Shown here in pieces: positions 22,282 to 42,843 of a stretch of DNA of 64,000 nt. The notes beneath the pieces are model-generated. The model made no database searches, was not told the origin of the DNA, and saw only the letters and a program-made list of their open reading frames with translations. Source of the stretch: a bacterium (GTDB lineage: Bacteria; Eisenbacteria; RBG-16-71-46; CAIMUX01); NCBI GenBank assembly GCA_030431975.1, contig JAUIHP010000012.1, positions 124,001 through 188,000 on the forward strand. Direction: 5' to 3'. Each line of letters begins with the position of its first letter. Within the stretch, counting starts at the first letter, position 1. Made by a program: the position numbers and the translations under genes.

Positions 22282-22373
22282 TGATCCAGTGAGAGGCCGC
22301 TGCGCATTCTGACCGTACCCGGTCACGCGTGACCAACGGCTCGAAACCGAGCGGAGAGAGGCAAACGCAAACG

Positions 22374-24520: not shown

Positions 24521-24549
24521 TTGAGAGGTGGATGGCGCGATAGTACGAT
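24521..24549 (+). promoter_or_regulatory. Promoter for the CsgG/TssBC operon
   Basis: TTGAGA (24521-24526), 17-bp spacer, TACGAT (24544-24549). Transcription would start near 24556, downstream of the first possible start codon at 24528. The first gene therefore more likely begins at TTG 24588, which has AAGGAGG 11 nt upstream. Confidence 0.5.
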
Positions 24550-24587
24550 GCAGCGGGCATGAGCTCGCGAAGGAGGGACTCTTCGCC

Positions 24588-25790
24588 TTGTTTTCCCACA
24601 TTCACCCGATCCCGGGTTTCCCGCGCGGCGACCGACAACTCGTGACCCTGCTCACTGTCGCAGTCGCCACGCTGACGGTCGCTTCGCTGACCGTCACTTC
24701 GCAGTCGCATGCGCAGGCGGATGCACAGACGGCTTCGCCGGAGCTGCTCTCCGAGTTTCGTGGCGATCCCATGAGCTTCTTCTTCGACCTGCGCGCGGAG
24801 GAAGCGGTTCTCTGCAGCCAGACCCTGCTCACCCGTTCGGATCTTGCAGACGAAGAACGGCGAGACATGCTGACGGCGTTGGCTGCGATCCATCTTGCCG
24901 ATGGCCGGCCTCGACAGGCCCGAGCTGCGTTCATGACTCTCCTGGCGACTGACCCGACCGCCGACCTCCATCGCCCGGAGTCACTGGCTCCCCCAATCAA
25001 GAAGATGTTCTACGGACTTCGGGACAGCATTCTCGTGGCGCGGGACATCGAACTCCCCCCGGACATCCGCACCGTCGCCATCGGACAAATCGACGCGCTT
25101 CCGGTCGTCCCGGGGAAGTACGACCTCGAAGCGTTCGCGCGCGGCCTCACCCACATTCTGACCTCCGACCTCAGCAACGCCACGCCACTCCGAATCGTCG
25201 ACCGCCAACGGCTGGATGTTCTCTTCAAAGAAATCGGGATCAACCAGAACGAAGAGCTGCTCGATCCGAAGAACGCCGTACCCTTCGGCAAACTGACCGG
25301 CGCTCAGTCCTTCCTTTTCGGAAGCCTGCTGCAGGTGGAGGAAGACAAGATTCGTTTCGACCTCCGCTGGGTCAACACGACAACGTCGGAAGTACACGTT
25401 TCCGAAGGCGTCGAGATGAAGGTCAAGTCCGCCGACGATCTCTTCAAGATGGAGAGGAAGGTTCTACTCGAGCTTCTCGTCCCGAAGATGCACGAAGTTC
25501 TGGTTGGCGTTTCCGGCGAGGAAGAGATCCCGAGCCGAAAGGACTTCGAGAAGCGGGCCAAGAAGTACCTGGACGGCAAGAAGAAGCTGAAGATGGCGGA
25601 CAACCGCAACTACCTCGACTTTCTGCTTCGAACGGGTGATGCGCTACTCGCCGAAGAGCGCGGTGACCTGGCCGCAGCACAGGCCGCGTGGAGCGAAGTC
25701 GCCGAGATGAGACCGGACGATCCGAGCCTGGAGTCGCAACGTATGGCCCTGGCCGCTCACATCCAGATCGCGGAAGGTGAAAGCCGATGA
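24588..25790 (+). CDS. CsgG-like envelope protein with C-terminal repeat region
   Basis: About 400 residues from TTG 24588; GTG 24641 is another option. A hydrophobic export segment (VTLLTVAVATLTVASLTVTS, ending SHAQA) is followed by a helical region and then a CsgG-like domain: TVAIGQIDALP, FARGLTHILTSDLSN, LRIVDRQRLDVLFKEI and GAQSFLFGSLLQ. The C-terminal 90 residues look like a TPR pair (LLAEERGDLAAAQAAWSEVAEM). It is a clear paralogue of the gene at 57111. CsgG proteins can form outer-membrane secretion pores; this one lacks an obvious lipobox, so pore formation is uncertain. First gene of an operon ending with tssBC. Confidence 0.78.
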   Translation: MFSHIHPIPGFPRGDRQLVTLLTVAVATLTVASLTVTSQSHAQADAQTASPELLSEFRGDPMSFFFDLRAEEAVLCSQTLLTRSDLADEERRDMLTALAAIHLADGRPRQARAAFMTLLATDPTADLHRPESLAPPIKKMFYGLRDSILVARDIELPPDIRTVAIGQIDALPVVPGKYDLEAFARGLTHILTSDLSNATPLRIVDRQRLDVLFKEIGINQNEELLDPKNAVPFGKLTGAQSFLFGSLLQVEEDKIRFDLRWVNTTTSEVHVSEGVEMKVKSADDLFKMERKVLLELLVPKMHEVLVGVSGEEEIPSRKDFEKRAKKYLDGKKKLKMADNRNYLDFLLRTGDALLAEERGDLAAAQAAWSEVAEMRPDDPSLESQRMALAAHIQIAEGESR

Positions 25791-27394
25791 AGATCACAGC
25801 AGGCGCCGGGATCCTTTCCGCATGTCTTCTGATTCTGGGTTCCGGTTGCGCTTCGACCACACGATCGCCGGCCGACCAGCTGGTCGAGCAGGGAGACTAC
25901 GAGGCTGCGGTCCTGGCCTATGAGGCCGAAGAGGCTCGACTTCCGGACGACCCGTTGATCAAACGAAACCACGGCATTGCCCTCTTCCGAGCCGGTCGGC
26001 GGAACGACGCCATCAGCAAGCTGCAAATCGCGCGCGCCCTCGAGCCGGAGAACCCGCAGACCTTGTACTTCCTGGGACGGGCAGCTGAGGAAACCGGGGA
26101 GACGGAATTGGCACTGGCCTCCTACACGGACTACCTGGCCGCAACCGGTCGCAAGGATGCGGTCGTCCGGGCCAAGGTTCACGACCTGACCTTTCAGCAG
26201 ACGAATCGCGAGATCATGGAAGCGCTCGAGCGGGAACAGTCGATCGATCCGCGATCCGTTCCGGAAAACACCCTGGCCGTTTCCGAGTTCGAGAACTCAC
26301 TCTCCGATCCCGATCTCGAAGCGCTTCGTCACGGGCTGGCGGCGGTGCTGATAACCGATCTCTCTCAGGTCCGCGAACTTCGAGTCCTGGAACGTGAGCG
26401 GTTGGGAGTGCTCCTCGACGAGATCTCCCTGACCATCCCGGCCGTGGATGCGTCAAGCGAGGCGCCGTCCTTCTCGCCGATTGAAACCGTCATTGGAATG
26501 AAGGAGCGTCTCGTCCTCCTGCAGCGTCCGGGCGGTGGAGCGTACTACTCCGGACCGATCGACGCCGAACGCGGCGCGGCATACGTCGACGCGGTCAAGG
26601 CCTTCCAACGCGACCGCGGTTTGGGGGTCGACGGCATTCCCGGACGACAAACCTGGAAGGCGGTCGACGAAGCCTTGGCCGAATCTTCCGCCTACGATCC
26701 GCCACCGGCGACGGAACGCCCTCGCGGTGCGGTGTCTGCCGAGAACGCGCCGCGGGTCGGAAAGCTCTTGGGAGCTCGCCGCTTCGTCCTCGGATCCTTC
26801 GCTCCGCTGGGTGACGAAGAGATCCAACTGGGGGCATCCCTCCTCGAAGTGGCCGAAGGAACACAGCTCCCGGCCGGACCTCCGGTGGTCGGACCATTGC
26901 CTCGCGTCCTGCGTCTGGAGAAGACACTTGTTGCCCAGATCTTCGAAGCCCTCGGCGTCGAGCCGAGTGAAGAAGAACGGCAACGGATCGAACAGGTCCC
27001 GACCGAAAACTTCCTCGCGTTCCTTGCCTACAGTCGAGGGCTCTACCTCGAAGACTCAGGAGACTTTCAGGGTGCGTTGGACGCCTACCGAGAGGCCGTC
27101 AGTCGCGACGGTTCGTTTCAGGCCGCCGTCGATCGCTCGGAGATCCTGTCGGTGACTTCGGACGACGAGTTGGATTTCGATCGGTCCCAACTTCTCGACT
27201 CGATCGGTAGTGTTCCCACGACCGATCCCGGGTTGCTGCTCCTGATCGGCGCGCGAGGTGCCCTTACGCCGCCACCGGGCGCCGAGGGCCCCCCGGGAGG
27301 CGATCCTTACGTCGACAGTCCGAAAGTCGGTGAGTCCGAGGCCGTCATTATCGTCGAAGGGGATCTCCCCGGAGGAAAGGGAGGCCAACCGTGA
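25787..27394 (+). CDS. TPR-CsgG lipoprotein with inserted peptidoglycan-binding domain
   Basis: A 535-residue lipoprotein: the signal peptide ends LILGSGC with lipidated C21. TPR-like repeats occupy about residues 28-150 (EQGDYEAAVLAYEAEEA). A CsgG-like domain starts near 165 (NTLAVSEFENSLSD, LRVLERERLGVLLDEI) and resumes near 320 (GKLLGARRFVLGSFAPLGDEEIQL). Between the two halves sits a PG-binding-1-like module (AYVDAVKAFQRDRGLGVDGI, about 265-298). A further TPR-like unit and a Pro/Gly-rich tail follow. It overlaps the upstream gene by 4 nt (ATGA) and the next gene by 4 nt (GTGA). The architecture suggests an outer-membrane protein gripping the cell wall (inference). Confidence 0.8.
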   Translation: MKITAGAGILSACLLILGSGCASTTRSPADQLVEQGDYEAAVLAYEAEEARLPDDPLIKRNHGIALFRAGRRNDAISKLQIARALEPENPQTLYFLGRAAEETGETELALASYTDYLAATGRKDAVVRAKVHDLTFQQTNREIMEALEREQSIDPRSVPENTLAVSEFENSLSDPDLEALRHGLAAVLITDLSQVRELRVLERERLGVLLDEISLTIPAVDASSEAPSFSPIETVIGMKERLVLLQRPGGGAYYSGPIDAERGAAYVDAVKAFQRDRGLGVDGIPGRQTWKAVDEALAESSAYDPPPATERPRGAVSAENAPRVGKLLGARRFVLGSFAPLGDEEIQLGASLLEVAEGTQLPAGPPVVGPLPRVLRLEKTLVAQIFEALGVEPSEEERQRIEQVPTENFLAFLAYSRGLYLEDSGDFQGALDAYREAVSRDGSFQAAVDRSEILSVTSDDELDFDRSQLLDSIGSVPTTDPGLLLLIGARGALTPPPGAEGPPGGDPYVDSPKVGESEAVIIVEGDLPGGKGGQP

Positions 27395-28584
27395 GGCCAC
27401 GTTCCGTTTCGGCACTCAGTTTCGTAACGAGCTTCCTTCTTGCCTCGGGCGCCCTGCTGTCGCTGGTGTCCACCGTCGCCGAAGCTCGATCGGGGATCCT
27501 CGGGCCAACTCGCATCCCGGCCAGCTTTCGATCCTGGACGTTGGAGGACGCGGCGGGAAACCAGACGACGCTGGAACAGATTCACGTCCCGGTCATGACC
27601 TCCGTTCATCTCGGCCGAAATGCCGATCTCGTCCTGGCCACGGCCTATGGCAGTTCGTCGCTCGATCCCGGTGAGGCCGCCGGCGAGGGGTCCAGTGACC
27701 TGAACGGAAACTCCGACGTCAAAGCACAGGTCTTCTTTCGCACCCTTGGTGATCGTCTTCTTCTTCAGGCCGGACTCTCCGCGCCGACGGGACTCCACGG
27801 ACTGGAACCGGGAGAACTGGAGATCCTGGGAGCCATCGGCAATCCGCTCCTCGGATTCCGAATGAAGCACTACGGAGAGGGATTCAACGTCAGCGCTGGC
27901 GCCGCTGCAGCCTTTCCCCTGGGTGACAGGGCCACTTTCGCTGTCGGCGGCGGATTCGTTCAACGCGGTGGATACGAGTTCGTCAAAGACCAACCGGACT
28001 TCACGCCCGGACGTGAGATCTCTGCTTCCGTCGGGCTTGACGTCGGCGGGTCGACCGGGCTTCCGCTCTTCCGGGTCGATACGTCCTATCGAATGTTCGC
28101 CGAGGACGAGCTCGGGAGTACGCCGATCTTCCAGGAAGGAAATCAGCTGGAACTGCAGGCCTCGTTGCACACTCGCCCTTCCGACTTCCACTTTGACGTG
28201 ACGGGGCGGGCCGTGCTCAAAGAGGACAACGAGACATTGACGGAGGTCGGCGGCTCGGTCGAAGCAGTTGCCGCCGACGCCGGGAAGGCACTGTTCGCGC
28301 GAGCCGAAGCCGGGTTCGATGTCTCCGATCCGATCTACGTGGCACTGGTGGCCGACTGGACCGGCTTCTCCGGAGGCGATGACGCATTGTCGAAAGGAAA
28401 CGTCTTCGGAGTCGGCCCTGCACTGGCGACACGATTGGGTGAGGCCGGAAGCTTCAGACTGGCCGGGCAGTACCTGGTCGGAAGCACAGACGACGATACA
28501 GACGGCAAAGGAAACCGAATCACCGGGCTCGACCTTTCCGGCTTTCACATCGAGGCGTCCTTGACCCTTCGCCCTGATTTTTGA
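27391..28584 (+). CDS. Predicted outer-membrane beta-barrel protein
   Basis: A 397-residue exported protein; the start GTG overlaps the upstream stop. The signal peptide ends near residue 32 (SVTEVAEARS-like region: LVSTVAEARS). The mature sequence alternates polar and hydrophobic residues in short strands with Gly/Asp turns (LFHLGRN-type hairpins) and ends in a strand closing with an aromatic residue (LTLRPDF), the usual BAM recognition end. It resembles the DUF3187/MetA-pathway type barrels without a specific match. Position between CsgG-like genes and a lipoprotein suggests it is part of one envelope assembly. Confidence 0.65.
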   Translation: MRPRSVSALSFVTSFLLASGALLSLVSTVAEARSGILGPTRIPASFRSWTLEDAAGNQTTLEQIHVPVMTSVHLGRNADLVLATAYGSSSLDPGEAAGEGSSDLNGNSDVKAQVFFRTLGDRLLLQAGLSAPTGLHGLEPGELEILGAIGNPLLGFRMKHYGEGFNVSAGAAAAFPLGDRATFAVGGGFVQRGGYEFVKDQPDFTPGREISASVGLDVGGSTGLPLFRVDTSYRMFAEDELGSTPIFQEGNQLELQASLHTRPSDFHFDVTGRAVLKEDNETLTEVGGSVEAVAADAGKALFARAEAGFDVSDPIYVALVADWTGFSGGDDALSKGNVFGVGPALATRLGEAGSFRLAGQYLVGSTDDDTDGKGNRITGLDLSGFHIEASLTLRPDF

Positions 28585-28609
28585 ACACGGACCAGTGGAG
28601 GACCCAGCC

Positions 28610-29329
28610 ATGAACGAGCGACATTCGAAGGGACGAGGCCGGCGTCGCCGAGACTCAGCGGGCATGCACTTGTTCCTGTCGTCCTCATCTTCAGCTGTCT
28701 TCGGACTCTGCCTCCTCGTCGCAGGATGTTCCGATGACGACGACGGCGGCCCTTCGACGCCGACCACCGAGACCTCCTTCGCTCGTTTCGAACTGACGAT
28801 ACCGGACGGCGCAAACCTGGAAGTCGCCACCGGTCGGGCGCAACCTCCGTTCGGCAGCATCGGCGACACAACCGTGGAATGGCCGACGGATGACAACACG
28901 GTCAGCTTTGTCACGCCGGTTCCGGAAGGCTCGACGACGTTTCTTCTCTCACTGGAAGGTACGCTTCGCACTCCGGGCGGCGCCCAAACGGGTCAGGGAA
29001 TCCTCTTTGCCTCCTCCCGCAATGTTGTGGGAGTGGCCGGAGACACGACGACCGTGTCCGAGCGACTGAGCCGCGTCGTTCCGGACACTGAAACCACCGT
29101 CGTCGGAGGAGATGCCGTTCGACTTCAGTGGAATGCCATCGGACGCGCCGAGTCCTATGACGTCCGCTCAGAGAACGCGACCGGAGACGTGGACATCGTT
29201 TCCCGAGCTGTGGCCGACACCACTTTTCCCCTGATCAAGCTCGAAGAAGAGATCACGGTCTCGATTCGGTCCGTGCTCCGGGACGGCCGGGTCTCGGCAT
29301 ACTCGACGCCACACCTCATCGAACCGTAG
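28610..29329 (+). CDS. Lipoprotein with Ig/fibronectin-like C-terminal domain
   Basis: A 239-residue lipoprotein: basic N-terminus, hydrophobic segment and lipobox LVAGC with C40, followed by SDDDDGG. The start is ATG 28610, which has GGAGG 8 nt upstream; an earlier GTG at 28595 has none. The middle is a beta-rich domain (ARFELTIPDGANLEV), and the last 80 residues (VRLQWNAIGRAESYDVRSEN) resemble a fibronectin type III fold. It sits in the CsgG/TssBC operon. No specific function is recognised. Confidence 0.72.
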   Translation: MNERHSKGRGRRRRDSAGMHLFLSSSSSAVFGLCLLVAGCSDDDDGGPSTPTTETSFARFELTIPDGANLEVATGRAQPPFGSIGDTTVEWPTDDNTVSFVTPVPEGSTTFLLSLEGTLRTPGGAQTGQGILFASSRNVVGVAGDTTTVSERLSRVVPDTETTVVGGDAVRLQWNAIGRAESYDVRSENATGDVDIVSRAVADTTFPLIKLEEEITVSIRSVLRDGRVSAYSTPHLIEP

Positions 29330-29374: not shown

Positions 29375-30943
29375 ATGTCTGGAATCGACTTCACCATGGG
29401 ATTCGGACCTTCCGGTACGCCGCGGGATCCCGCACAACCGACACGAATCCTCGTCCTCGGGGACTTCTCCGGACGTGCCGGTCGGGAGCCCGCCTCTCCC
29501 CTTGGCGGTCGCAAGCCGCGACGCATCGACCTCGACAACTTTGAGTCCGTCTTCGCGGAACTGAAGCCACGGCTTCTTCTGGACGTCGGCTCCGAACTGA
29601 CCGTCGAGATCACACCGTCGGACCCCGACGAACTCCATCCGGATGAACTCTACGATCGGTTGGAACCGTTCGCGGAACTTCGCGGATTGAGAAAACGTCT
29701 GGCCGACCCGTCGACGTTCGCAGCGGCGGCGGCGGAGCTTCGTGCCGCTGCTGGGTCGGGATCGGGTTCGGACTCGGGTTCCGGGGAAACAGGCTCGACG
29801 AACGATTCTTCGACCACATCTAACGGCGGCAACTCGATCGAACGGGACTCCAGCCAAGATGCGGACGCTTCCGGATCCGAGTCCGGTGGTGACTTCGCGG
29901 CCCTCCTCGGCGGCGCGGTCGGAAAGGGCACGACGAAGGCCAAGAGTAGCGACCGGATCGAAGCCTGGCTCGAGCAGCTGGTCGGCCCGCACATCGTTCC
30001 GGAAGCCGACCCCACCCAGGATCTGTACCTCACCGCAGTCGATGACTCGTTGGGGCAGCTGATGCGCGCCGTCCTCCACCATCCTCAGTTCAAAGCTTTC
30101 GAAGCCGCCTGGATTGGTCTTCGTCACCTGATCATGGAAGTGACCGGCCAGGAAGAGACGTCGGTGTTCATCCTCGATTCCACCCGCCCCGAAGTGGCGG
30201 CAGACCTCGGGGTGGATGCGTCGGATTGGAGCGCGGAAGCGTCTTCGCTTGTGAAGCTACTGGTCCACTCTACAGCCGGAGATGCTTCCTGGAGCTGGGT
30301 GCTCTTCGATCCACCGATCGAGGCAACCACGCAGGACCTGCAAATGGCCGGCCGCCTCGGAACCATTGCGGCCGAGGCTGGAGCTGACCTGGTCGGAACA
30401 GCCGGGGCGTCTCTTTTCGGTCGCTCTCACTACGACGAGTCCGTCGACGACTCCTGGTCCGTCGGACAGACGGACGGTGAGGTCGCCGAACTCTGGAACG
30501 CGCTTCGCAACTCACCGGCCGCCGAATACATCTGCCTGCTCGCGCCGCGGATCGTCGGTCGTCAGCCGTACGGCGCCGGCAGCGATCCCATCGAACGTTT
30601 CCAGTTCGAGGAGATTCCGGCGCCCTATGAACATGGCCGCTATCTGTGGCTCAACCCTGCATACGCGTTCGTCGCACTCGTCCACGGGGCGCTGGTGTCG
30701 AACGAGCTGCCCGTCTCAGGCCCGGTTGGAAACCGCACGCGGCCGCTGGCCGACATCACTTTGGAGAGTCTGCCCGTCCATACCTTCCCCACCGATGACG
30801 GCAAGGCAATGAAGGCGTGCGCGGAAAGCTTCCTGACGGAGAAGGTCGTCGAAGCGTTGTCGGATCAGGGTATCGCGGCGTTGGCAAGCATCCGTAACAC
30901 GGACCGTGCGCGAATCTGGAGAGGTCGTTCCATCAAGATGTGA
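29375..30943 (+). CDS. Fused TssB-TssC T6SS sheath-like protein lacking the TssC C-terminus
   Basis: A 522-residue fusion. Residues about 20-120 match TssB (RILVLGDFSGR, IDLDNFESVFAELKPRL). A Ser/Gly/Asp-rich linker covers about 125-190. Residues 195-522 match TssC: FKAFEAAWIGLRHLIMEV, LLAPRIVGRQPYGAGSDPIE and LPVHTFPTDDG, all with clear counterparts in the tssC product at 39690-41180. It ends where TssC reaches its FMPLVHRKNSDFAAF segment, so about 120 C-terminal residues of TssC are absent. Separate tssB and tssC genes are present, so this is an accessory sheath-like protein. It is last in the CsgG operon and convergent with the T6SS minus-strand operon. The ribosome site is GGAAGGGA. Confidence 0.85.
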   Translation: MSGIDFTMGFGPSGTPRDPAQPTRILVLGDFSGRAGREPASPLGGRKPRRIDLDNFESVFAELKPRLLLDVGSELTVEITPSDPDELHPDELYDRLEPFAELRGLRKRLADPSTFAAAAAELRAAAGSGSGSDSGSGETGSTNDSSTTSNGGNSIERDSSQDADASGSESGGDFAALLGGAVGKGTTKAKSSDRIEAWLEQLVGPHIVPEADPTQDLYLTAVDDSLGQLMRAVLHHPQFKAFEAAWIGLRHLIMEVTGQEETSVFILDSTRPEVAADLGVDASDWSAEASSLVKLLVHSTAGDASWSWVLFDPPIEATTQDLQMAGRLGTIAAEAGADLVGTAGASLFGRSHYDESVDDSWSVGQTDGEVAELWNALRNSPAAEYICLLAPRIVGRQPYGAGSDPIERFQFEEIPAPYEHGRYLWLNPAYAFVALVHGALVSNELPVSGPVGNRTRPLADITLESLPVHTFPTDDGKAMKACAESFLTEKVVEALSDQGIAALASIRNTDRARIWRGRSIKM

Positions 30944-31010: not shown

Positions 31011-31870
31011 GTCTCGACGATCCACTCAACGCCTTCGCCCAGGACCACTGGCCAGTCCCCTGGAAAGTGATGTCCACCGGGATGGGTGAAGGTCTCCCAG
31101 AGCTGCCCGGAGTCGCCCCAGAGCTTCTGCGCCTTCTCGGCGGTCCCAGCGACCCGGTCTCCCTCCGCGGTTCCGTAGATCAGACGCAAAGGGTGCGTGC
31201 CGCTGAGCGCCGGCGTGGATTCCGGCCAGGTGGCGCCGGCCGGAGAGATGGACAAGACGCCTCCGTAGACGTCGGGGTATTGCATCACCAGAAGAAGTGA
31301 CCGGATTCCCCCCTGCGAGAACCCACCGACGTGAAGCACGGAGAAATCGAAACGGTCGAGATCCTGGGAGTTCCAGTCGAGTTCTGCCTTCATCGCCTCG
31401 AGCTGCGCCTGAATGTGCGTGTGAGCCTCTTCCGCCCCGCCCTGCCAGCTTCGTCGGCCATTCCCCAGGTCGGACATGGCATCGACACTGATCGCCGCCG
31501 CGCCTCGTTCCGCCGTCAAGCGAGCGACATGGTCAAAGTCTTCCTTGTTCGTGCCGTAACCGTGCAGGTAGACGAAGACAGGCCAGCCTCCGTCGGGCGG
31601 CGCACCCGCAGGCACGGCCAGGAGGCAAGTTTCCGTACTCGTCACCGTTACTCGGGAACTGGCGGATGCCCCCGCGTTCACCTCTGTCTCCTGGGAGACG
31701 GCTGAGGCTTCCGCGCTCGCAAACATGTCCGCGCGAGCGGCGAATGCGTCTTCCGCCGCTCCCGATCCAGGTGTGAGCAAACCAGCCGCCAGGATCGCAA
31801 AGACCCCGGCAGCGGCACCGATGCGACTACTCAAAGCTGTACCCGAACTCGCCGTCTTCCACGGTGACAT
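30983..31870 (-). CDS. Exported alpha/beta-hydrolase (esterase/phospholipase-like)
   Basis: About 295 residues from ATG 31870; TTG 31834, overlapping the clpV stop, is an alternative. An export signal (GAAAGVFAILAAGLLTPGSG) precedes an alpha/beta-hydrolase: oxyanion strand VFVYLHGYGTN, nucleophile elbow GFSQGG, and the catalytic histidine probably in HPGGHHFPGDW. This fits the carboxylesterase/phospholipase family. The first codons overlap clpV, so it is the last gene of the T6SS minus-strand operon. It could be a periplasmic enzyme cotranscribed by chance or a T6SS-associated lipase; no immunity gene is visible. Confidence 0.8.
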   Translation of the reverse strand: MSPWKTASSGTALSSRIGAAAGVFAILAAGLLTPGSGAAEDAFAARADMFASAEASAVSQETEVNAGASASSRVTVTSTETCLLAVPAGAPPDGGWPVFVYLHGYGTNKEDFDHVARLTAERGAAAISVDAMSDLGNGRRSWQGGAEEAHTHIQAQLEAMKAELDWNSQDLDRFDFSVLHVGGFSQGGIRSLLLVMQYPDVYGGVLSISPAGATWPESTPALSGTHPLRLIYGTAEGDRVAGTAEKAQKLWGDSGQLWETFTHPGGHHFPGDWPVVLGEGVEWIVETTRSARSEK

Positions 31871-34574
31871 GGACTCTGGCGACGTCTTCTCCGGAAAGCA
31901 TCTTGCCGAGGAACTCGCGACTGACCGCAGGCAGCATCGTGTTCGTAAGAATGGCATCGATCATGCGACCGCCACTCTCGATCTCCGTACAGCGTTCGAT
32001 GATGAGATCGACGACGGCATCGTCGTAGCTGAACGGAACCTTGTGATTGGCCTGAACCCGCCGTTGGATCCGCCCAAGCTGCAGCTTGGCAATCTCACCG
32101 ATCATCTGGTCCGAGAGCGGATAGTACGGAATCGTCACGATACGGCCGAGGAGTGCGGCCGGGAACACCTTGAGCAGCGGCTCCCGCAACGCCTTGGCAA
32201 TCCCCTCGGGGTCGGGCATCAGTTCCGGATCCTTGCACATGCTCATGATGAGATCGGATCCGACGTTCGAGGTCAGTAGGATGAGCGTGTTCTTGAAGTC
32301 GATGAGCCGTCCTTCGCCGTCTTCCATGATCCCCTTGTCGAAGACCTGGAAGAAGATCTCGTGGACATCCGAGTGCGCTTTCTCGACCTCGTCGAGAAGG
32401 ACGACGGAATAGGGACGGCGGCGCACGGCCTCAGTGAGGATTCCGCCCTCTCCGTAGCCGACGTAACCGGGAGGCGCACCTTTCAGCGTCGACACGGTGT
32501 GCGCTTCCTGAAACTCACTCATGTTGATCGTGATGACATTGGACTCGTCGCCGAAGAGCACCTCGGCCAATGCGAGCGCGGTTTCCGTCTTACCGACACC
32601 GGAAGGACCGGCCAGCAGGAAGACCCCGATCGGCTTGTTCGGATTGTCGAGTCCGGCCCGTGACGTCTGAATCCGCTTGGCCACCATCTCGATTCCGTGT
32701 CCCTGACCGATGACGCGCTTGTTGACGATGTCGGCCAGACCGAGGACGGTTTCGATCTCGTCCTTGACCATGCGTCCAACCGGAATGCCGGTCCAATCCG
32801 CAACGACCGAAGCAACGGCCTGCTCGTCGACGGAGGGAAGGATGAGCGGGCTCTCGCCCTGGAGTTCGCCAAGCTGGGTCTGCAACTTTCCGAGCTCACC
32901 GAGCAGGTCATCACGCTGCCCGGGCTCGAGCGGAGCCGGAGGTTCCCCTTCAATGGAAACGTCCTCCGCCGCTTCGTCCGCGGCCTTCTCCAGGTCACTC
33001 TCCGTGCCCTCGACCTTTTCGACCGCACCGCGAAGTTGGCTTCGGATCTCCAGAATCCGGTCGACCAGTTCCTTCTCCGAGTTCCAGCGTTCTTCCAGTC
33101 CAGACAGACGCTCCCGCTCGACCGTCAACAATTCCTGAGCCTGATCTTCGCGGTCTTTGACGTCCACCCCGACCGCCGCTTCGCGGGCGATGATCTCGAG
33201 TTCCGTATCCAGGGCTTCGATCCGCCGGCGACTGTCCTCGACCTCGGCAGGAACGGCGTGCTGCGAAATCGCCACACGCGCCGACGCGGTGTCGAGCAGA
33301 CTGACCGACTTGTCCGGAAGCTGCCGCGCCGGAATGTATCGGTGTGAAAGACGGACGGAAGCTTCCAGAGCCTCATCCAACACCTGAACGCGGTGATGCT
33401 TCTCGAGGCCGGAGGCGATGCCCCGCATCATGAGGATGGCTTTGTCCTCGCTCGGCTCCGGCACCTGCACGACCTGAAAACGACGGGTCAACGCGGGGTC
33501 TTTTTCGATGTGCTTCTTGTACTCGGCCCAGGTTGTGGCCGCGATCGTCCGCAGTTGTCCGCGCGCCAACGCCGGCTTCAGCAGGTTGGCCGCATCTCCG
33601 GTTCCGGCCGCTCCACCGGCGCCGATCAAGGTGTGCGCTTCGTCGACGAAAAGGATGATCGGCTTGGCCGAGGACTGTACTTCCTCGATGACCTGACGCA
33701 GCCGGTTCTCGAACTCGCCCTTCATGCTGGCGCCGGCCTGTAGCAGACCGATGTCCAGGGAAAGCAGACGAACGCCCTGCAGCGGCGGCGGAACATCACC
33801 CTTGGCGATACGCGCGGCAAAACCTTCCACGACCGCGGTCTTTCCGACGCCGGCTTCACCGGTCAGGATCGGATTGTTCTGACGACGCCGCATCAGGATG
33901 TCGACGATCTGACGAATCTCTTCATCACGGCCGACGATGGAGTCGATCTCTCCCTGCCGCGCCTGCTCGGTCATGTCGACGCAGAACTGTTGGAGCGCCT
34001 CTTCCTTGCCCATGGCGGCCGGACCCATGGCGCCGGACGCTTCGCCGGGCGCCGCTCCCCCGCCAACCTGAAACCCATCCTGTGCTCGGAGAGAGTTTTC
34101 CGGTGAGCCTTCCGTGATCTCGTCGAACTTGTCCATGAGCTGTTCGATCTTGATCTTGTCGAACTGGTCGGAGATCCCGATGAAGTTGTTCCGAAGGCCG
34201 CGGTTCTTGAGGATTCCGATGACGAGGTACCCGCTGCGAACCTGCGAGTCGCCGAAGTACAGCGTCGACCACATCCAACCTTCCTTGACCGCTTCCTCGA
34301 CGTGGGAGGAAAGATCGGAGATCGTCGTCGAGCCGCGCGGCAACCGGTCGAGGTTCTCCTGCAGGTCCGCCACTAGCCGGGCCGGATCCACTCCGAAGGC
34401 CTTGACGATCTTGTGCAGGTCCGAATCGGACAATTGCAGGATCTGATGGATCCAGTGCACGAGCTCGACGTAGGGATTGCCCCGCATCTTGCAGAACACG
34501 GTTGCCGCTTCGATCGACTTGTAGCCGACACTGTTCAGCTTGCCGAAGAGTTGCGCGCGGTTGATCTCCGCCAT
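31827..34574 (-). CDS. clpV: T6SS AAA+ ATPase ClpV (sheath recycling)
   Basis: ClpV (TssH) unfolds the contracted TssB/TssC sheath for reuse. The 915-residue chain has the ClpV-type N domain (about 1-165), AAA1 with Walker A GEAGVGKT at 239-246 and Walker [11 protein letters not shown], a middle region with coiled coil (about 430-580) and AAA2 with [11 protein letters not shown] near 650 and [28 protein letters not shown] is characteristic of ClpV rather than ClpB. It starts at ATG 34574 with GGAG 7 nt upstream, 27 bp after tssG. Confidence 0.95.
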
Positions 34575-34601: not shown

Positions 34602-35654
34602 CTACCCCGCCATCTGCTCCAGCGGTGTAAAGCAGGCACTGTCGTCGTCATCCGCCAACGGTTGGCTTGCCACCCAACTTGTCCAGCCGAGCCGACCTTC
34701 TTCCCCCAGCTTGAGCGGGGGCACTTCGTCCTTGTCCAGAATGAGATTCACGTCCCAGAGCAACTCGTCACCGACATAGTTCCGAATGAGATCGGTCAAC
34801 CGATCCAGGGCTTCACCTCCGGGAACAAAGCGCTGATAGATCGCATACGGCATCGGACCGATGACGACCCGGAACTTCTGCTGACACTGCCAAACCCGGC
34901 CGCCGACGGTCGTCGAAACTCCGAGCTGTCCAATAGCCTGATTGGGGTCGGGGTGACCAGGTTGGCCAAGACGCCACAATGCATCGTTCGGCAGATGGAT
35001 CCACTCGCCGACCATTTCCAGGATCCGGACCGGTACTTTGAAGAATCCGCGAAGCATCCCCTCCAGTCCGTCCGCGTTCTTCGTGTGCAGTCCGAACCGT
35101 CCCGCAAAGTGGAGTTTGAACGAGTCGGTGACCCGGTCCCGGCCCCGCTGGGAATCCAATCCGTATCCGCAGAGAGCGCCAGCGTATCGCAGGAAGCGAT
35201 CCTCCGAGGGACGGTCGTACGAGACGGCCGGCGTACCGTCGGCCCAGGCGCGGTAGAAAAGCGACATCATCCGGTGATGAAAGAGGTCGGCGAATCGCGC
35301 AAAGGTCGGATCGCTTTCGCTCCGCCACCGCTGCCGCGCAAACTCGGTCAGATGGTGCGGCAGCGGTCCGTTGGGACCGAAAACTCCGAAGAACAGGGAA
35401 TAGAGACGGGGAACCGATCCGCCCTGGGTCCACTCCAGCTTGCGGAGTGTGGACGGCGCGAAGGCCAGGGACGGTTCCTGTGCCAGACGTACGGGATCGT
35501 CGTCCGGGCGTACAGTCCGGCCAAGACGCGGTTTGTCCGGATGCAGGGCTTCGATACGCCGTAGCGCCTCGTAAAAGCCGTACTTCCAGGGCTCCGCCTC
35601 GAGCTCCCGATACCAGTCTAGAGCTGTTGTCGCCGTCCGGTCCTCACCGGCCAC
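34602..35654 (-). CDS. tssG: T6SS baseplate subunit TssG
   Basis: A 350-residue TssG; with TssF, TssE and TssK it forms the baseplate wedge. The family hallmarks are WYRELEAEPWKYGFYEALRRIE near the N-terminus, LYSLFFGVFGPNGPLPHHLTEFARQR, and DLFHHRMMSLFYRAW. The start is GTG 35654, giving a 37-nt overlap with tssF, so the two are translationally linked as is usual. Confidence 0.94.
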   Translation of the reverse strand: MAGEDRTATTALDWYRELEAEPWKYGFYEALRRIEALHPDKPRLGRTVRPDDDPVRLAQEPSLAFAPSTLRKLEWTQGGSVPRLYSLFFGVFGPNGPLPHHLTEFARQRWRSESDPTFARFADLFHHRMMSLFYRAWADGTPAVSYDRPSEDRFLRYAGALCGYGLDSQRGRDRVTDSFKLHFAGRFGLHTKNADGLEGMLRGFFKVPVRILEMVGEWIHLPNDALWRLGQPGHPDPNQAIGQLGVSTTVGGRVWQCQQKFRVVIGPMPYAIYQRFVPGGEALDRLTDLIRNYVGDELLWDVNLILDKDEVPPLKLGEEGRLGWTSWVASQPLADDDDSACFTPLEQMAG

Positions 35655-37492
35655 CGCATGATCTCCCCGCGATCGGTGGTTCTCACCACTGTCTCGGTGA
35701 ACGAGTTGATGGAAACGTACTTGGCAAAGAATTGTTCGAGCACCGCGCCGAGCAGAAAGACGCCGGAGCCCTCGAAGGCGCCCTCATCGCAGGTCAGCTC
35801 GACTTCGAGTCCCCGACCGAACGAAACCGGGCCGCCGTTGGGAATGCGACGGGTCACGGACCGGCTTCCCACACTGCGAACGCCTTCGATCTGTTTCCGT
35901 ACTGCCGGCTCCGCGAGATCGCCGTACAACGCCAGAAGATCCCGCAAAGCTGCCGCGCCTTGACCCTTGGTATCCGTCAAGGTCAGATAGTTCAGCGAAA
36001 GGTGGCTGACGAATCGCCAGACGAGGTCGCCTCCGAATCGGGCCGCACGCGGTTTCGTCGGTCCCGCCAGAGCGCGAACGGCATCGACCGGAGCCCCGGA
36101 TTCCAGGGTGAAGTCCGTTTTGCCCTGCCCGATGGGAATGTGAAGCGGAAGGTCGCGATTCGTGCAGAGAGTGTTCACAGCCAGTTGCTTCAATTCGGTT
36201 TGCAGCGGTGCTTCACGTCCGTCGACCAGGGCGACGAAAGTCTCACTTCCGATGTAGCTCGAGCGCGGGCCCTGTCGTTTTTGCCGGGAAGAGAATCGAC
36301 GCGCACTTCGCGCAACGGTGAAGTAGGCCTGAAGGTCGCCGTACCGGTTCTGATCGGTGTGGGCATAGAACGGAAGGAACTCCGTACGATCTTCGGCCAC
36401 GCTTCCGTGCCCGACCACCGACTCTACCCGGTGGACTTCGAAGTCCAGGGGCCGCGTCCGGTCCGGGACGACGTGGTACTCGTGCGAACGCTTGTCGAGA
36501 TGAATTCGGTCCGCCGTCTTCGGAAACAGGTTGATGACCGGGCCGCAGTGTAGTGCGAAGTCATTCGCATCGATTGCGTTTTCGAGCAACGTGTCGCTCT
36601 TGTCGAACAGGACAAGGACCTCGATCTCGGAACTCGGACAGCGACGGATTCCGCGGGAAAGTCCGCCCACATCCACGAAGAGAAAACGTTCCGGGAAGGC
36701 GAAGAACTCGTGCAGGTAGCGATAGCCACGGAAAGAACGGTCGACGTTCGGTAGAAGTGCCTGATCGTCTTCAAAGCCGACGTGACGCACGTTCTCGCGT
36801 CCGCTGAATTCCGTCCACGTCACGGGCCGCTCGACGGGTCGCACCACGACCCCGACCGAACTTCCGATGAGCTGTTCGTAGAGACGCATCGGGGTCGCGC
36901 CCTTCCCGCGAAGAAAGAGGCGTAGAGTGTTCAGGCTGAGACGGTCAAAGGTCAGGCCGGCCGTCGACCGAAGTTTGAACCGAATCCCCGCTTTGACTTT
37001 GGTGACATCGATACCCGGGACACCGGCCAGGTCCTGAAAGAAGCCCAGATACTCGGCCTCGACCAACTCGATGGGCCAGAGAGTCGTCTCCTGACCGAGC
37101 CGATACTCGCACGCCGTCTGGTCTCCCTTTCCGATGGTGCTACGCAGAGCAGTACCGGCCTTGACCCGGTAACCCTCGGCCAGCGCCCCTTCTCCCAGGT
37201 CCGGCTGCAGTTGCACCACGGCCATCGACGGCGTCGGGCACAGGTAGTGCGGGTAGACCAGCTCCAGGAGATGCTGCGTGAACTTGGGAAACTGTGCGTC
37301 CAGTTTCAGCTGCACGCGCGCCGCGAGAAAAGCGAAGCTCTCCAGCAGCCGCTCTACGTAGGGATCGGAGCACTCGAAGCCGTCGAGCCCGAGTCGGGCC
37401 GCGACCTTGGGAAACTCCTTCGCGAACTCGCCGCCCATCTCGCGGACGAACTGCAGCTCACGGTTGTAGTAGTCGAGAAGTCTTGGATCCAT
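35618..37492 (-). CDS. tssF: T6SS baseplate subunit TssF
   Basis: A 624-residue TssF. The N-terminus MDPRLLDYYNRELQFVREMG and the following DPYVERLLESFAFLAARVQLKLDAQ are strongly characteristic. The typical end RGLEVELTCDE...GSGVFLLGAVLEQFFAKYVSINSF is present. It is the core of the baseplate wedge. Its ATG shares one base with the tssE stop (TGATG) and it overlaps tssG by 37 nt. Confidence 0.95.
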   Translation of the reverse strand: MDPRLLDYYNRELQFVREMGGEFAKEFPKVAARLGLDGFECSDPYVERLLESFAFLAARVQLKLDAQFPKFTQHLLELVYPHYLCPTPSMAVVQLQPDLGEGALAEGYRVKAGTALRSTIGKGDQTACEYRLGQETTLWPIELVEAEYLGFFQDLAGVPGIDVTKVKAGIRFKLRSTAGLTFDRLSLNTLRLFLRGKGATPMRLYEQLIGSSVGVVVRPVERPVTWTEFSGRENVRHVGFEDDQALLPNVDRSFRGYRYLHEFFAFPERFLFVDVGGLSRGIRRCPSSEIEVLVLFDKSDTLLENAIDANDFALHCGPVINLFPKTADRIHLDKRSHEYHVVPDRTRPLDFEVHRVESVVGHGSVAEDRTEFLPFYAHTDQNRYGDLQAYFTVARSARRFSSRQKRQGPRSSYIGSETFVALVDGREAPLQTELKQLAVNTLCTNRDLPLHIPIGQGKTDFTLESGAPVDAVRALAGPTKPRAARFGGDLVWRFVSHLSLNYLTLTDTKGQGAAALRDLLALYGDLAEPAVRKQIEGVRSVGSRSVTRRIPNGGPVSFGRGLEVELTCDEGAFEGSGVFLLGAVLEQFFAKYVSINSFTETVVRTTDRGEIMRWPVRTGRRQQL

Positions 37493-37992
37493 CAGTCCGC
37501 TTCCGAGACCGTGTAGGTGCCGTCCTCGAGGTCGACCTCGGTCTTGAGATAGAGGCGAACCGGAATCGGTTGCGACCAGAGTTCGCCCTCGATTCGAAAC
37601 GTGAGTGCGTTGTGGCTCATTCGATTCCGATCGAGGTGAACCGAGACCTTGAGCGACTCCGGAAGGACCCGCGGTTCGTAGATCCGAATGGATTCCCGGA
37701 TCATCGACTCGACCTCACGAACGTCGACTCCCGATGCGGGAATTCCCGTCAGGTCAGTCATTCCGTAGTTGAGGGTGGAGCTCTTTACTTCAGGATACGC
37801 GTCGAGATCGACGACGGCTTCCAAGTGTCCGGTATTGAGCAGCCACCCGAGATCCCGGATGACGCTCTCACGAAGTTTGTTCAAAGAAAGGACGCGCTTG
37901 TCCCGCGACTCGACTTTGGTGTGCGGCTCTTCGTCCGTCAGCCGGTCGAGCAGAGAGGGCTGTAGCTTTTCCTGCGGTGTCAGTTCCGCCAA
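37492..37992 (-). CDS. tssE: T6SS baseplate subunit TssE (gp25-like)
   Basis: A 166-residue protein, similar to phage T4 gp25, that nucleates the sheath on the baseplate. The gp25 core is LRESVIRDLGWLLNT, with PEVKSSTLNYGMTDLTG and IRESIRIYEPRV, including the E-P-R signature. The start is TTG 37992 (TAGG upstream). It lies between tagJ and tssF. Confidence 0.93.
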   Translation of the reverse strand: MAELTPQEKLQPSLLDRLTDEEPHTKVESRDKRVLSLNKLRESVIRDLGWLLNTGHLEAVVDLDAYPEVKSSTLNYGMTDLTGIPASGVDVREVESMIRESIRIYEPRVLPESLKVSVHLDRNRMSHNALTFRIEGELWSQPIPVRLYLKTEVDLEDGTYTVSEAD

Positions 37993-39689: not shown

Positions 39690-41180
39690 TTACTCTTTTT
39701 CGGAAGGCAGCTTGGAGACCAGACGGAGCGAAACCGTCAGACCCTCGAGCTGGTAGTGCGGCCGCAAGTGGAAGACAGACCGGTAGTAACCGGGGTTGCC
39801 CTCGACTTCTTCGACCGAAACTTCCGCTGCCGCCAGCGGGCGCTCCGCCTTCGTCTGCTCTGACGAGTGAGCCGGATCCCCGTCCACGTAGTTGAGAATC
39901 CAGTCCTGGAGGAAGCGCTGCATGTCCTCCCGCTCTTTGAACGAACCGATCTTGTCACGGACGATGCACTTCAGATAGTGCGCAAATCGACACGTGGCAA
40001 AAAGGTACGGGAGACGGGCCGCCAGATTGGCGTTGGCCGTGGCGTCCGGATCGTCGTACTCGTCCGGCTTGTTCAGCGATTGCGCCCCGATGAACGCCGC
40101 AAAGTCCGAGTTCTTGCGGTGAACGAGCGGCATGAAGCCGTTTTTGGCCAATTCCGCTTCGCGACGGTCCCCGATGGCGATTTCGGTCGGGCACTTCATG
40201 TCCACGCCGCCGTCATCGGTCGGGAATGTGTGGACCGGAAGGTTCTCGACCGCTCCGCCGGACTCGACACCGCGGATCCGTGAACACCAGCCGTAGAGCT
40301 TGAAGGACCGCGTGATGTTCCGAGCCATGGCATACGCCGAATTGGCCCATGTGTACTTGGAGTGATCCGCGCCCTCGGTCTCTTCCTCGAAGTTGAACTC
40401 CTCGACCGGATCGGTCTTGGCGCCGTAAGGAAGGCGGGCCAGGAATCGTGGCATGGCCAGACCGAGATACTTGGAGTCCTCGGACTCACGCAGGGAACGC
40501 CAGGCGGCGTACTCAGGAGTCGTGAAGATCTTCGTCAGGTCGCGCGGATTGGAAAGCTCCTGCCAGGAGTCCATCTGCATGAGAGCCGGCTCGGCGCCCG
40601 CGATGAACGGAGCGTGGCAGGCGGCCGCGACTCCGGACATTTCCGTGAGAAGCTCGACATCCGGCGGACTGTGATCGAAGTGGTAGTCGCCGACGATGCA
40701 GCCGTAGGGCTGGCCGCCGAACTGGTCGTACTCTTCACCGTAGAGCTTCTTGAAGATCGGGCTCTGGTCCCAAGCCGTGCCCTTGAACTTCTTCAGCGTC
40801 TTGTGAAGGTCCTTCTTCGAGATGTCCATGACCCGGATCTTCAGCATCTCGTCGGTCTCGGTGTTGTTGACGAGGTAGTGAAGTCCGCGCCACGCGCCTT
40901 CCAACTTCTGGAAGTCGTCGTGGTGAAGGATCTGATTGACCTGATCCGTCAGCTTCTCGTCGATCGCGGCAATGATCGCGCTGATCGTCTCGACGACATC
41001 GTCGGAAACGGTCGAAGTGTCTTTGAGGAGTTCGGCGGCCAGGATGTTGACCGCGGACTGAACTTCGTCCTTGGCCCGATCCGACTTCGGCTTGAACTCC
41101 TTCTGAAGGAGAGATGCGAACTCGCCGGCCTCGATGGTCTCAGCTGCCGCTCCCTGGGCCTCCTGTGCTTCTTCTGCCAT
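39690..41180 (-). CDS. tssC: T6SS sheath large subunit TssC
   Basis: A 496-residue TssC. Family signatures are LEGAWRGLHYLV, QPYGCIVGDYHFDHSP, AMPRFLARLPYGAKTDPV and LPVHTFPTDDG. The C-terminal domain that interlocks sheath subunits is complete (FLQDWILNYVDGDPA to the final YQLEGLTVSLRLVSKLP strand). It is the reference for judging the truncated TssC part of the fusion at 29375. It starts 6 nt after the tssB stop. Confidence 0.96.
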   Translation of the reverse strand: MAEEAQEAQGAAAETIEAGEFASLLQKEFKPKSDRAKDEVQSAVNILAAELLKDTSTVSDDVVETISAIIAAIDEKLTDQVNQILHHDDFQKLEGAWRGLHYLVNNTETDEMLKIRVMDISKKDLHKTLKKFKGTAWDQSPIFKKLYGEEYDQFGGQPYGCIVGDYHFDHSPPDVELLTEMSGVAAACHAPFIAGAEPALMQMDSWQELSNPRDLTKIFTTPEYAAWRSLRESEDSKYLGLAMPRFLARLPYGAKTDPVEEFNFEEETEGADHSKYTWANSAYAMARNITRSFKLYGWCSRIRGVESGGAVENLPVHTFPTDDGGVDMKCPTEIAIGDRREAELAKNGFMPLVHRKNSDFAAFIGAQSLNKPDEYDDPDATANANLAARLPYLFATCRFAHYLKCIVRDKIGSFKEREDMQRFLQDWILNYVDGDPAHSSEQTKAERPLAAAEVSVEEVEGNPGYYRSVFHLRPHYQLEGLTVSLRLVSKLPSEKE

Positions 41181-41186
41181 GAGCTC

Positions 41187-41705
41187 TTACTCCCCTTCCG
41201 AGGCGCCTTCGCCCTCGGGATTCGGTGCCGATGCCAGAGACTGCAGCAGAGCCGGATCCTTCATGACCTTGGCCATGAGTTCCTCGGCGCCCGTCTTGCC
41301 GTCCATGTACGTGATCAGGTTGTTGAGCTGCGTCCGCGCCTCGAGAAGCTTGTTCAGCGCGTCGACCTTCCGGGCGACTGCGGCCGGGGAGAAGTCGTCC
41401 ATGCTCTCGAAGGTAAGATCGACATTGAGATTGCCTTCGCCGGTCAGCGTGTTCGGAACGGAGAAAGCCGCGCGCGGCTTCGTCGCCTTCATACGCTCGT
41501 CGAAGTTGTCGACGTCGATCTCGAGGAACTTGCGGTCTGCAACCGGGGCCAACGGATCGGCTGGCTTGCCGGAGAGGTCAGCCATCACTCCCATGACAAA
41601 TGGGAGCTGAACCTTTTTCTCCGCCCCGTACAACTCGACGTCGTATTCGATCTGCACTCGCGGGGCCCGGTTGCGGGCGATGAACTTCTGGCTGCTGTCT
41701 GCCAA
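41187..41705 (-). CDS. tssB: T6SS sheath small subunit TssB
   Basis: A 172-residue TssB from TTG 41705, preceded by AGGAGGT 6 nt upstream and giving the canonical opening ADSSQKFIARNRAPRVQIEY. The frame extends upstream, but without a ribosome site. LPFVMGVMADLSG, FLEIDVDNFDERM and the Ala/Glu-rich C-terminus match the family. It forms the contractile sheath with TssC. Confidence 0.95.
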   Translation of the reverse strand: MADSSQKFIARNRAPRVQIEYDVELYGAEKKVQLPFVMGVMADLSGKPADPLAPVADRKFLEIDVDNFDERMKATKPRAAFSVPNTLTGEGNLNVDLTFESMDDFSPAAVARKVDALNKLLEARTQLNNLITYMDGKTGAEELMAKVMKDPALLQSLASAPNPEGEGASEGE

Positions 41706-41758
41706 GGGAACACCTCCTATGGCTGATTTCAGTTGCGAAGAAGTTGGCCCGCTGAGGA

Positions 41759-41780
41759 CCGAAAACACCGCGGTTTTCGG
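41759..41780. other. Inverted repeat between tssA and tssB
   Basis: CCGAAAAC (41759-41766) and GTTTTCGG (41773-41780) form a perfect 8-bp hairpin with a 6-nt loop, 28 nt after the tssA stop on the minus strand. It could be a weak terminator or a protein-binding palindrome ahead of tssB. Confidence 0.45.
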
Positions 41781-41808
41781 CACTTTTGCGGCAACTACTC
41801 ATTACTCA

Positions 41809-42843
41809 CTAGTAGGACTCGGTGTCAACCCCCCGGATCGCCTCGGCCTCGGTGACACCGCTCGGCGCGAGATCCGCGAGAATTTCCATGAAGCTCTTCG
41901 ATACGAGTCGCTTCGCCCGCGTCATCAGGATCGGCAAGGGACTCGAGGGCTCGTTGCGGTTGTAGTAGTCGATGATCTTGTCGAGAGCGCGCAACACGTC
42001 GTCGGTGTTGCGAATCTCTCCGGACAGACCTTTGACCGCTCCTGCAACCGCGCCTTCACCTTCGGCGCCTTCCGCTCCTTCCTCCTCCTCACCCACCCCA
42101 CGTCGAAGCAACTGGCTGTCGATGACACCCTTCAGAGAGTGAATCACCGCCGGCAGCGCCGACATATCGGGAGCCTGGGACGCACCCAGGGTCTCCGTCA
42201 AAAACTGATCCATGGCCGCAACGGTCTCGGCCGCTGCTGCGAGTGCATCGCCCCGCGCCTGCAACTCTTCGAGATCACACTCGAGAAAGGCCGCTTCGAT
42301 GGTCGGCATCTGCGGCGGGTCGCCTTCCTCCGGCGGAGGGAGTTCGCCCTGAGCGACCTCGATGTCGCGCAGCGAAAACCGTCCCATCATCTGCGACTCG
42401 ACGAGCGGGGCCTCACGAAGAGAACGGATCGTCGAGCCGGAATCGCACAGCGAAGCCACCGTGTTCACGCGCAAGGTCGGGTCATTGTCATCGTCCGGAT
42501 CCAGGGCCGGATGGACGCCTTCCCAGAAAGTCGTCATGAGCCCGTGGACGAGCTTGAGACCGTCGGCGAATCCGGAGAGGCCGTCGGTGTGCACGGCGGC
42601 TCGGGTCAGGAATACGGCTGCACGGAGATCCCGGCTACGTCCCAGGACGCCGAGCGCCTTGGTCTTGACGACCTTCCAATCGGGCTCCTCAGCCGGGACA
42701 AAGGTGTCCCCAAACTGCTGTTCGGCCTTTCCGACCGAAGCCCGCTCCATCTCCTGAAACTCGGTGTCGTACTCCAGATCCTCGCCGCACGGAGATTCCG
42801 GCGACAACTCGCTGAGCAAGGCATCGAGGTCGATCGTGGACAT
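41809..42843 (-). CDS. tssA: T6SS protein TssA (ImpA N-terminal domain)
   Basis: A 344-residue TssA: the ImpA_N domain is seen as SPCGEDLEYDTEFQEME, EEPDWKVVKTKALGVLGRSRDLRAAVFL and TTFWEGVHPALDPDDDNDPTLR. An acidic linker (EEEEGAEGAEGEG, about 260-275) precedes the C-terminal domain with IIDYYNRNEPSSPLPILMTRAKRLV, the short-form TssA end. TssA primes and caps tube-sheath assembly. Confidence 0.94.
   Translation of the reverse strand: MSTIDLDALLSELSPESPCGEDLEYDTEFQEMERASVGKAEQQFGDTFVPAEEPDWKVVKTKALGVLGRSRDLRAAVFLTRAAVHTDGLSGFADGLKLVHGLMTTFWEGVHPALDPDDDNDPTLRVNTVASLCDSGSTIRSLREAPLVESQMMGRFSLRDIEVAQGELPPPEEGDPPQMPTIEAAFLECDLEELQARGDALAAAAETVAAMDQFLTETLGASQAPDMSALPAVIHSLKGVIDSQLLRRGVGEEEEGAEGAEGEGAVAGAVKGLSGEIRNTDDVLRALDKIIDYYNRNEPSSPLPILMTRAKRLVSKSFMEILADLAPSGVTEAEAIRGVDTESY

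What the first reader, a model, noticed from the sequence alone, without database searches (positions are those of the whole stretch)
29375..30943. TssB-TssC fusion missing the TssC C-terminal interlocking region, next to an intact tssB/tssC pair
One protein joins a TssB-like half, a Ser/Gly/Asp linker and a TssC-like half. It keeps the core segments (e.g. LPVHTFPTDDG) but stops about 120 residues before the TssC end, where strands that hook neighbouring sheath subunits are known to lie. Complete TssB and TssC are encoded at 39690-41705. A sheath-like unit that can dock but not extend the chain could act as a sheath end cap, initiator or anchor. It shares an operon with CsgG-like envelope proteins.
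Basis: partly seen in the sequence, partly recalled or inferred. Interest (0 to 1): 0.78.

Follow-up and report, generated by a model that had tools for sequence, protein, structure and literature searches.

The report
Truncated sheath-protein fusion in type-VI secretion
Some bacteria that fire a contractile "type VI" injection needle also make a one-piece version of the sheath's two-part building block that lacks the part which locks blocks together, so it probably caps or controls the sheath rather than building it; the window holds one member of this scattered, barely described family.

Summary
ORF 29375-30943 (522 aa) joins a TssB-like half (PF05591) and the TssC N-terminal domain (PF05943) and lacks the last ~127 residues of TssC (PF18945, sheath domain 1), while intact H1-type tssB and tssC lie 10 kb away.

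The truncation is conserved. Full-length relatives in Eisenbacteria, Planctomycetota, Burkholderiales and roseobacter plasmids all lack domain 1. Both halves form one clade (100/100), so the fusion arose once. Roseobacter members match "TssCL", described in 2022 as confined to Alphaproteobacteria, function unknown (PMC9515649); the window protein is a compact variant outside that group.

The family keeps a TssB beta1-like donor strand, the TssB/TssC core and the H1-type TssC N-terminal motif. It lacks the handshake acceptor strands, the TssC donor strand and the TagJ-binding segment. Sheath subunits donate strands towards the baseplate and accept from the next ring, so such a unit could dock on the last ring but accept nothing: a distal cap fits, an initiator does not. 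Localisation is untested. Frequent vgrG/PAAR linkage keeps a spike or baseplate role open. CsgG linkage is not general for the family.

The parts
29375..30943 (+). TssB-TssC fusion lacking TssC domain 1 (522 aa)
   Evidence: Pfam PF05591 + PF05943, no PF18945; model mean pLDDT 75.8, pTM 0.78; Foldseek top hit TssC1 5n8n_B, E 3.6e-17
29384..29407 (+). beta1-like N-terminal strand (aa 4-11 IDFTMGFG), aligned with the TssB donor strand VQIEYDVE
   Evidence: alignment A4; similar Phi-x-F-x-[FYM]-x-[FL] stretch in nearly all members
29438..29716 (+). TssB-like half, aa 22-114
   Evidence: PF05591 E 1.5e-10; model pLDDT mostly above 80
29762..29950 (+). Ser/Gly/Asp-rich low-confidence linker, aa 130-192
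   Evidence: pLDDT below 50
29888..29908 (+). GDFAALL, counterpart of the H1-type TssC N-terminal motif [GS][DE]FxxLL
   Evidence: aligned with GEFASLL of the window's TssC; motif in H1-type TssCs and, degenerate, in the fusions
30029..30931 (+). TssC N-terminal domain (sheath domains 2/3 part), aa 219-519
   Evidence: PF05943 E 2e-43
24528..25790 (+). CsgG-domain protein, upstream in the same-strand run
   Evidence: PF03783 E 5.4e-9
25787..27394 (+). TPR + peptidoglycan-binding protein
   Evidence: Pfam
27391..28584 (+). hypothetical protein of the same run
   Evidence: ORF, no Pfam hit
28595..29329 (+). predicted lipoprotein 46 bp upstream of the fusion
   Evidence: ORF with lipobox-like start, no Pfam hit
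31827..34574 (-). TssH/ClpV
34602..35654 (-). TssG
   Evidence: PF06996
35618..37492 (-). TssF
   Evidence: phmmer to annotated TssF E 1.6e-173
37492..37992 (-). TssE (gp25-like)
   Evidence: PF04965
38138..38977 (-). TagJ/ImpE, marker of H1-type T6SS
   Evidence: PF07024
39077..39589 (-). Hcp
39690..41180 (-). intact TssC with domain 1
   Evidence: PF05943 + PF18945; P. aeruginosa TssC1 5n8n_B E 1e-262
41187..41783 (-). intact TssB (probable start at 41705)
   Evidence: PF05591 E 4e-59; SSQKFIARNRAPR
41809..42843 (-). TssA, the only ImpA_N protein of the genome
47654..48115 (+). TssJ
   Evidence: PF12790
48152..49522 (+). TssK
49539..50285 (+). TssL
50297..53674 (+). TssM

Best explanation
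The protein is an accessory, non-polymerising sheath subunit of an H1-type (TagJ-containing) T6SS. Shown by sequence: it is one TssB-TssC protomer in a single chain; it keeps the outer and middle sheath layers, a TssB-type N-terminal donor strand and the H1-type TssC N-terminal motif; it lacks domain 1 (handshake acceptor strands and inner tube-facing layer), the TssC C-terminal donor strand and the TssB segment to which TagJ binds. Inferred: its donor strand and core dock onto the acceptor domains of the last TssBC ring, far from the baseplate. With no acceptor of its own it stops further ring addition, and with no TagJ site it is less readily recycled by ClpV. In short, it is a distal sheath terminator or stabiliser in systems without TagA.
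For: All 12 other full-length members lack domain 1 and end at the same boundary; Pfam finds no VipB_2 in any of the 9 full-length members scanned, and a TssC-tail HMM and hhalign find none. Single origin: TssC halves one clade 100/100, TssB halves one clade 100/100. A beta1-like strand is kept in almost all members. In solved TssB1C1, TssC beta11/12 accept TssB beta1 and TssC beta13 (PMC5807055); linkers point to the ring nearer the baseplate and TssE accepts the first ring (PMC5813253). TssB residues 8-30 (QKFIARNRAPR...) bind TagJ (PMC4239648) and that stretch is missing from the fusions. G000, G011, G022 and G396 each hold a single ImpA_N protein, hence no TagA beside TssA. The fusions sit on far longer branches than their TssCs, as expected for a protein outside the lattice.
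Against: No localisation, binding or complex model. The beta1 counterpart is weak in the model (2 residues as strand, low pLDDT) and a short amphipathic strand could be convergent. Genes most often lie beside vgrG/PAAR, hinting at a spike or baseplate role. H1-type systems of most other bacteria work without this protein (4 of 294 Burkholderiaceae genomes have it). The missing TssC donor strand would weaken docking.
Confidence: 0.4

Rival explanations
1. Regulator or decoy of sheath turnover: the free fusion mimics the exposed outer part of the sheath protomer and binds ClpV, free TssB/TssC or TssA, tuning assembly and disassembly without joining the sheath.
For: It keeps the outer layers and the H1-type TssC N-terminal motif. 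Roseobacter members carry long acidic arrays of DLDDLL-type repeats and a conserved terminal D[AP][DE]LxxLL, which could be multivalent ligands.
Against: The TagJ-binding TssB segment is lost (PMC4239648). The arrays are absent from the window and Burkholderiales members. The beta1-like strand would not need to be kept.
Confidence: 0.25
2. Spike or baseplate adaptor: a sheath-derived scaffold that docks on the gp25-like TssE or in the baseplate cavity and helps load VgrG/PAAR cargo.
For: Direct or near neighbour of vgrG/PAAR in Rugamonas, G495, Eisenbacteria G011 and five roseobacter plasmids, in the first three with a TPR-methyltransferase gene. TssE carries the same kind of acceptor fold.
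Against: In the window's genome the only VgrG found is on another contig; in G388 the gene adjoins tssA-tssB-tssC. Occupying TssE would compete with the first sheath ring.
Confidence: 0.2
3. Alternative sheath subunit that co-assembles with TssB/TssC along the sheath or builds a second sheath.
For: Same fold as TssC; the TssCL paper raises the question whether it forms a functional sheath with TssB/TssC (PMC9515649).
Against: No acceptor strands, no TssC donor strand and no tube-facing domain in any full-length member; far faster evolution than lattice subunits.
Confidence: 0.07
4. Decaying gene without function.
For: Long branch; the window member has lost the C-terminal LxGxW tail kept by the other 12 full-length members.
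Against: Open frame, coding GC3 pattern, 33-38% identity over the full length to members in other phyla, single ancient clade with conserved architecture.
Confidence: 0.05

Closest known systems
TssCL of roseobacters (PMC9515649, 2022)
   Same: TssB-like plus TssC N-domain in one ORF, beside separate tssB and tssC, in an H1-like T6SS with ImpE/TagJ, FHA and PAAR genes; roseobacter plasmid members of this type are in one clade with the window protein.
   Different: Described TssCL is about 1,684 aa with two VipA domains and reported only in Alphaproteobacteria. The window protein is 522 aa with one VipA domain, no acidic repeat array, in Candidatus Eisenbacteria. The paper passages read do not discuss the missing domain 1.
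TssB/TssC (VipA/VipB) sheath heterodimer, H1-type (5N8N)
   Same: Domains 2 and 3 of the protomer, beta1-like strand, TssC N-terminal motif.
   Different: Single chain; lacks domain 1, the TssC C-terminal donor strand and the TagJ-binding TssB segment.
TagA (ImpA_N family) distal-end cap
   Same: Proposed job: stop sheath growth at the distal end.
   Different: Unrelated family; in four fusion-bearing genomes the single TssA is the only ImpA_N protein.
TssE/gp25 sheath initiator
   Same: Interacts with the first ring by the same handshake.
   Different: TssE is an acceptor domain; the fusion lacks exactly that domain.

Membership tests
TssCL | VipA and VipB domains in one ORF | tested here: met
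TssCL | co-occurs with separate tssB and tssC | tested here: met
TssCL | one clade with roseobacter fusions | tested here: met
   100/100 for both halves; the published ANG-M7 sequence itself was not compared
TssCL | two VipA domains, about 1,684 aa | tested here: not met
   one VipA domain, 522 aa; also one VipA domain in Qingshengfaniella
TssCL | restricted to Alphaproteobacteria | tested here: not met
   members in Eisenbacteria, Planctomycetota, Burkholderiales
TssC (TIGR03355 sheath large subunit) | score above curated cut-off over the full model | tested here: not met
   141.8 bits against 271.5; model positions 49-346 of 473
TssC (TIGR03355 sheath large subunit) | C-terminal VipB_2 / domain 1 | tested here: not met
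TssB (TIGR03358 sheath small subunit) | score above curated cut-off | tested here: not met
   42.1 bits against 97.25
distal sheath cap | localises to the distal sheath end | not testable with these tools
   needs microscopy
distal sheath cap | can donate to but not accept from neighbouring rings | tested here: inconclusive
   acceptor absent; donor strand supported by alignment only

The most novel reading that the evidence does not exclude
A family spread over several phyla of 'chain-terminating' sheath subunits, made from a fused TssB-TssC protomer whose handshake acceptor was lost once, sets sheath length in H1-type T6SSs that lack TagA: a sheath capped by a cut-down copy of its own subunit.
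Probability: 0.3. Interest if true: 0.75.

Novelty: new variant of a known kind. Interest (0 to 1): 0.55.

Why it matters
How sheath growth ends in H1-type T6SSs, which lack TagA, is unsettled; PMC6745524 asks whether other proteins of H1-T6SS help sheath assembly. A conserved sheath-derived protein that lacks exactly the chain-extending domain is a direct, testable candidate. It also shows that a protein reported as roseobacter-specific has relatives in Eisenbacteria, Planctomycetota and Betaproteobacteria, and that plasmid records label it simply as the TssC large sheath subunit.

Tried and rejected
AlphaFold2 with 5 rows gave pLDDT 49.5, so it was replaced by a 16-row alignment with TssB and TssC rows. 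The viral contig scan for TssC found nothing. Pseudomonas and Aquabacterium hits of the genome scan (L041-L046) are ordinary adjacent tssB-tssC pairs, not fusions, and were excluded; so was a Salmonella plasmid hit. A frameshift hiding the missing domain was rejected: no domain-1-like sequence was seen in the three frames just past the stop and all relatives end there. 'Homologues only where tssBC is missing' was rejected: the hosts with good assemblies have both; the Planctomycetota bin has no other PF05943 protein and no TssF but does have TssK, which fits an incomplete bin. 'Initiator' is disfavoured on geometry. Searches for TssB-TssC/TssBC fusion phrases missed the TssCL paper, which surfaced later (read); only one paper in the held library uses that name.

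Full report
What is there. ORF 29375-30943 (+) encodes 522 aa with a TssB-like half (PF05591, aa 22-114, E 1.5e-10) and the TssC N-terminal domain (PF05943, aa 219-519, E 2e-43), without PF18945. It fails the curated NCBIfam cut-offs for both TssB and TssC. The window also holds a T6SS core of the TagJ-containing (H1) type: TssA, B, C, Hcp, TagJ, TssE, F, G, ClpV on the minus strand and TssJ, K, L, M on the plus strand. Its TssC is a close relative of P. aeruginosa TssC1 (5n8n_B, E 1e-262). The genome has only these two PF05943 proteins; the only VgrG match found is on another contig.

Structure. With a 16-row alignment AlphaFold2 gave mean pLDDT 75.8 and pTM 0.78, core mostly above 80, linker 130-192 below 50. 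Foldseek's top nine hits are T6SS large sheath subunits (TssC/VipB/IglB), best 5n8n_B (E 3.6e-17). The profile of the family aligns with 5n8n_B only to residue 338 of 461: the rest corresponds to domain 1.

A family, not an accident. Genome searches found full-length relatives in Candidatus Eisenbacteria SS_bin_28 (G011 = L025/L039) and an N-terminal piece at a contig edge in G022, in Rugamonas apoptosis and R. fusca and a Planctomycetota MAG, in three other genomes of the Rugamonas family (G388, G495, G396), and on roseobacter plasmids (Qingshengfaniella, Leisingera, Parasedimentitalea, Phaeobacter). All 13 full-length proteins stop the TssC fold at the same boundary: 2-14 aa follow in the short forms, 91-114 aa of mostly acidic low-complexity tail in the roseobacter and Planctomycetota forms, against 122-131 aa in 34 TssCs. 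A TssC-tail HMM and hhalign find no domain 1 in them. Maximum-likelihood trees of the TssC half and of the TssB half each give the fusions as one clade with 100/100 support. One fusion and one domain loss explain them all, followed by fast evolution, while the hosts' main TssCs form a tight H1-type clade. Long branches were flagged by the tree program, so relations inside the clade are less sure than the clade itself.

What was kept and lost. In solved TssB1C1, TssC beta11/beta12 (domain 1) accept a TssB beta1 strand and a TssC beta13 strand from neighbours (PMC5807055). Each subunit sends both linkers to the ring nearer the baseplate, and TssE is thought to accept those of the first ring (PMC5813253). 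The fusions keep a beta1-like strand (IDFTMGFG here; LIFEFQL, MEFAFRF, MEFSFQF, PEFAYGT elsewhere) at the place of TssB VQIEYDVE, and the H1-type TssC N-terminal motif [GS][DE]FxxLL, degenerate in some. They lose beta11-13 and the TssB segment QKFIARNRAPR that binds TagJ (residues 8-30 of HsiB1, PMC4239648). Twelve of 13 full-length members end in, or continue after, an LxGxW motif; the window member has lost it.

Context. The gene lies beside or near vgrG/PAAR in Rugamonas, G495, Eisenbacteria G011 and five roseobacter plasmids, three lineages. A TPR-methyltransferase gene is next to it in G011 and G495, and follows after a DUF4337 gene in Rugamonas. In G388 it adjoins tssA-tssB-tssC. In the window it ends a same-strand run with CsgG and TPR/peptidoglycan-binding proteins, which was not seen with other fusions. 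Of eight fusion-bearing genomes tested, four (G000, G011, G022, G396) have a single ImpA_N protein, their TssA, so no TagA.

Mechanism (inferred). A unit with a donor strand and the TssBC core but no acceptor can be added to the last ring and accept nothing, so distal termination or stabilisation is the reading I prefer (0.4). Initiation is disfavoured because an initiator must offer an acceptor. Turnover regulator (0.25) and spike/baseplate adaptor (0.2) remain open; ordinary sheath subunit (0.07) and decaying gene (0.05) are unlikely. Nothing here shows where the protein sits.

Comparison with the known. A 2022 paper (PMC9515649) described TssCL in roseobacters: a fusion of TssB and TssC domains beside intact tssB/tssC, two VipA domains, 1,684 aa, not detected outside Alphaproteobacteria, function unknown. 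The roseobacter proteins used here come from the same kind of locus and are probably TssCL; the published sequence itself was not compared. The window protein is therefore a compact variant of that kind. What this work adds is its spread to Eisenbacteria, Planctomycetota and Burkholderiales, its single origin, the constant loss of domain 1 with retention of a donor-like strand, and the loss of the TagJ site. The library searched holds open-access papers only, so an unseen description is possible.

Noticed in passing
L029:8768-12024, L027:5051-8308, L031:9450-10874, L033:6608-11164, L132:9274-10716, L133:2873-4387, L128:10335-12026, L130:9673-11574: A second, separate clade (99/99) of accessory TssC-like proteins that keep a domain-1-like C-terminus, some fused to a TssB-like half, some in tandem pairs, in T6SSs not of H1 type; six Eisenbacteria genomes without an H1-type TssC hit have one.
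   Followed up: partly
L083:18459-21650, L135:10414-13662, L137:10225-13728: Roseobacter fusions carry several hundred residues of acidic DLDDLLGDL-type repeats before the TssB half and again after the TssC half, ending in MDADLAALLDDL or close variants.
   Followed up: partly
L031:418-5081: In the related genome G001, homologues of the window's CsgG, TPR/PG-binding and 27391-28584 genes lie about 4 kb upstream of a full-length accessory TssC-like gene, so this envelope gene set may travel with accessory sheath paralogues.
   Followed up: partly
L025:478-1878, L037:12147-13505, L118:11562-12911: A TPR-methyltransferase gene is next to, or one gene away from, the fusion in Eisenbacteria and Burkholderiales; role unknown.
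   Followed up: no
window 11089-11568: ORF whose translation repeats LLLQAALFEAVLLEQEASLETFWTAP in tandem, probably a DNA tandem repeat.
   Followed up: no
window 19054-23306: SNF2-family helicase (DUF3670, 1075 aa) followed by an ORF with a SWIM zinc finger.
   Followed up: no
L040:8023-9792: The Planctomycetota bin with a fusion has TssK but no TssF and no other PF05943 protein: an incomplete bin or a reduced system.
   Followed up: partly
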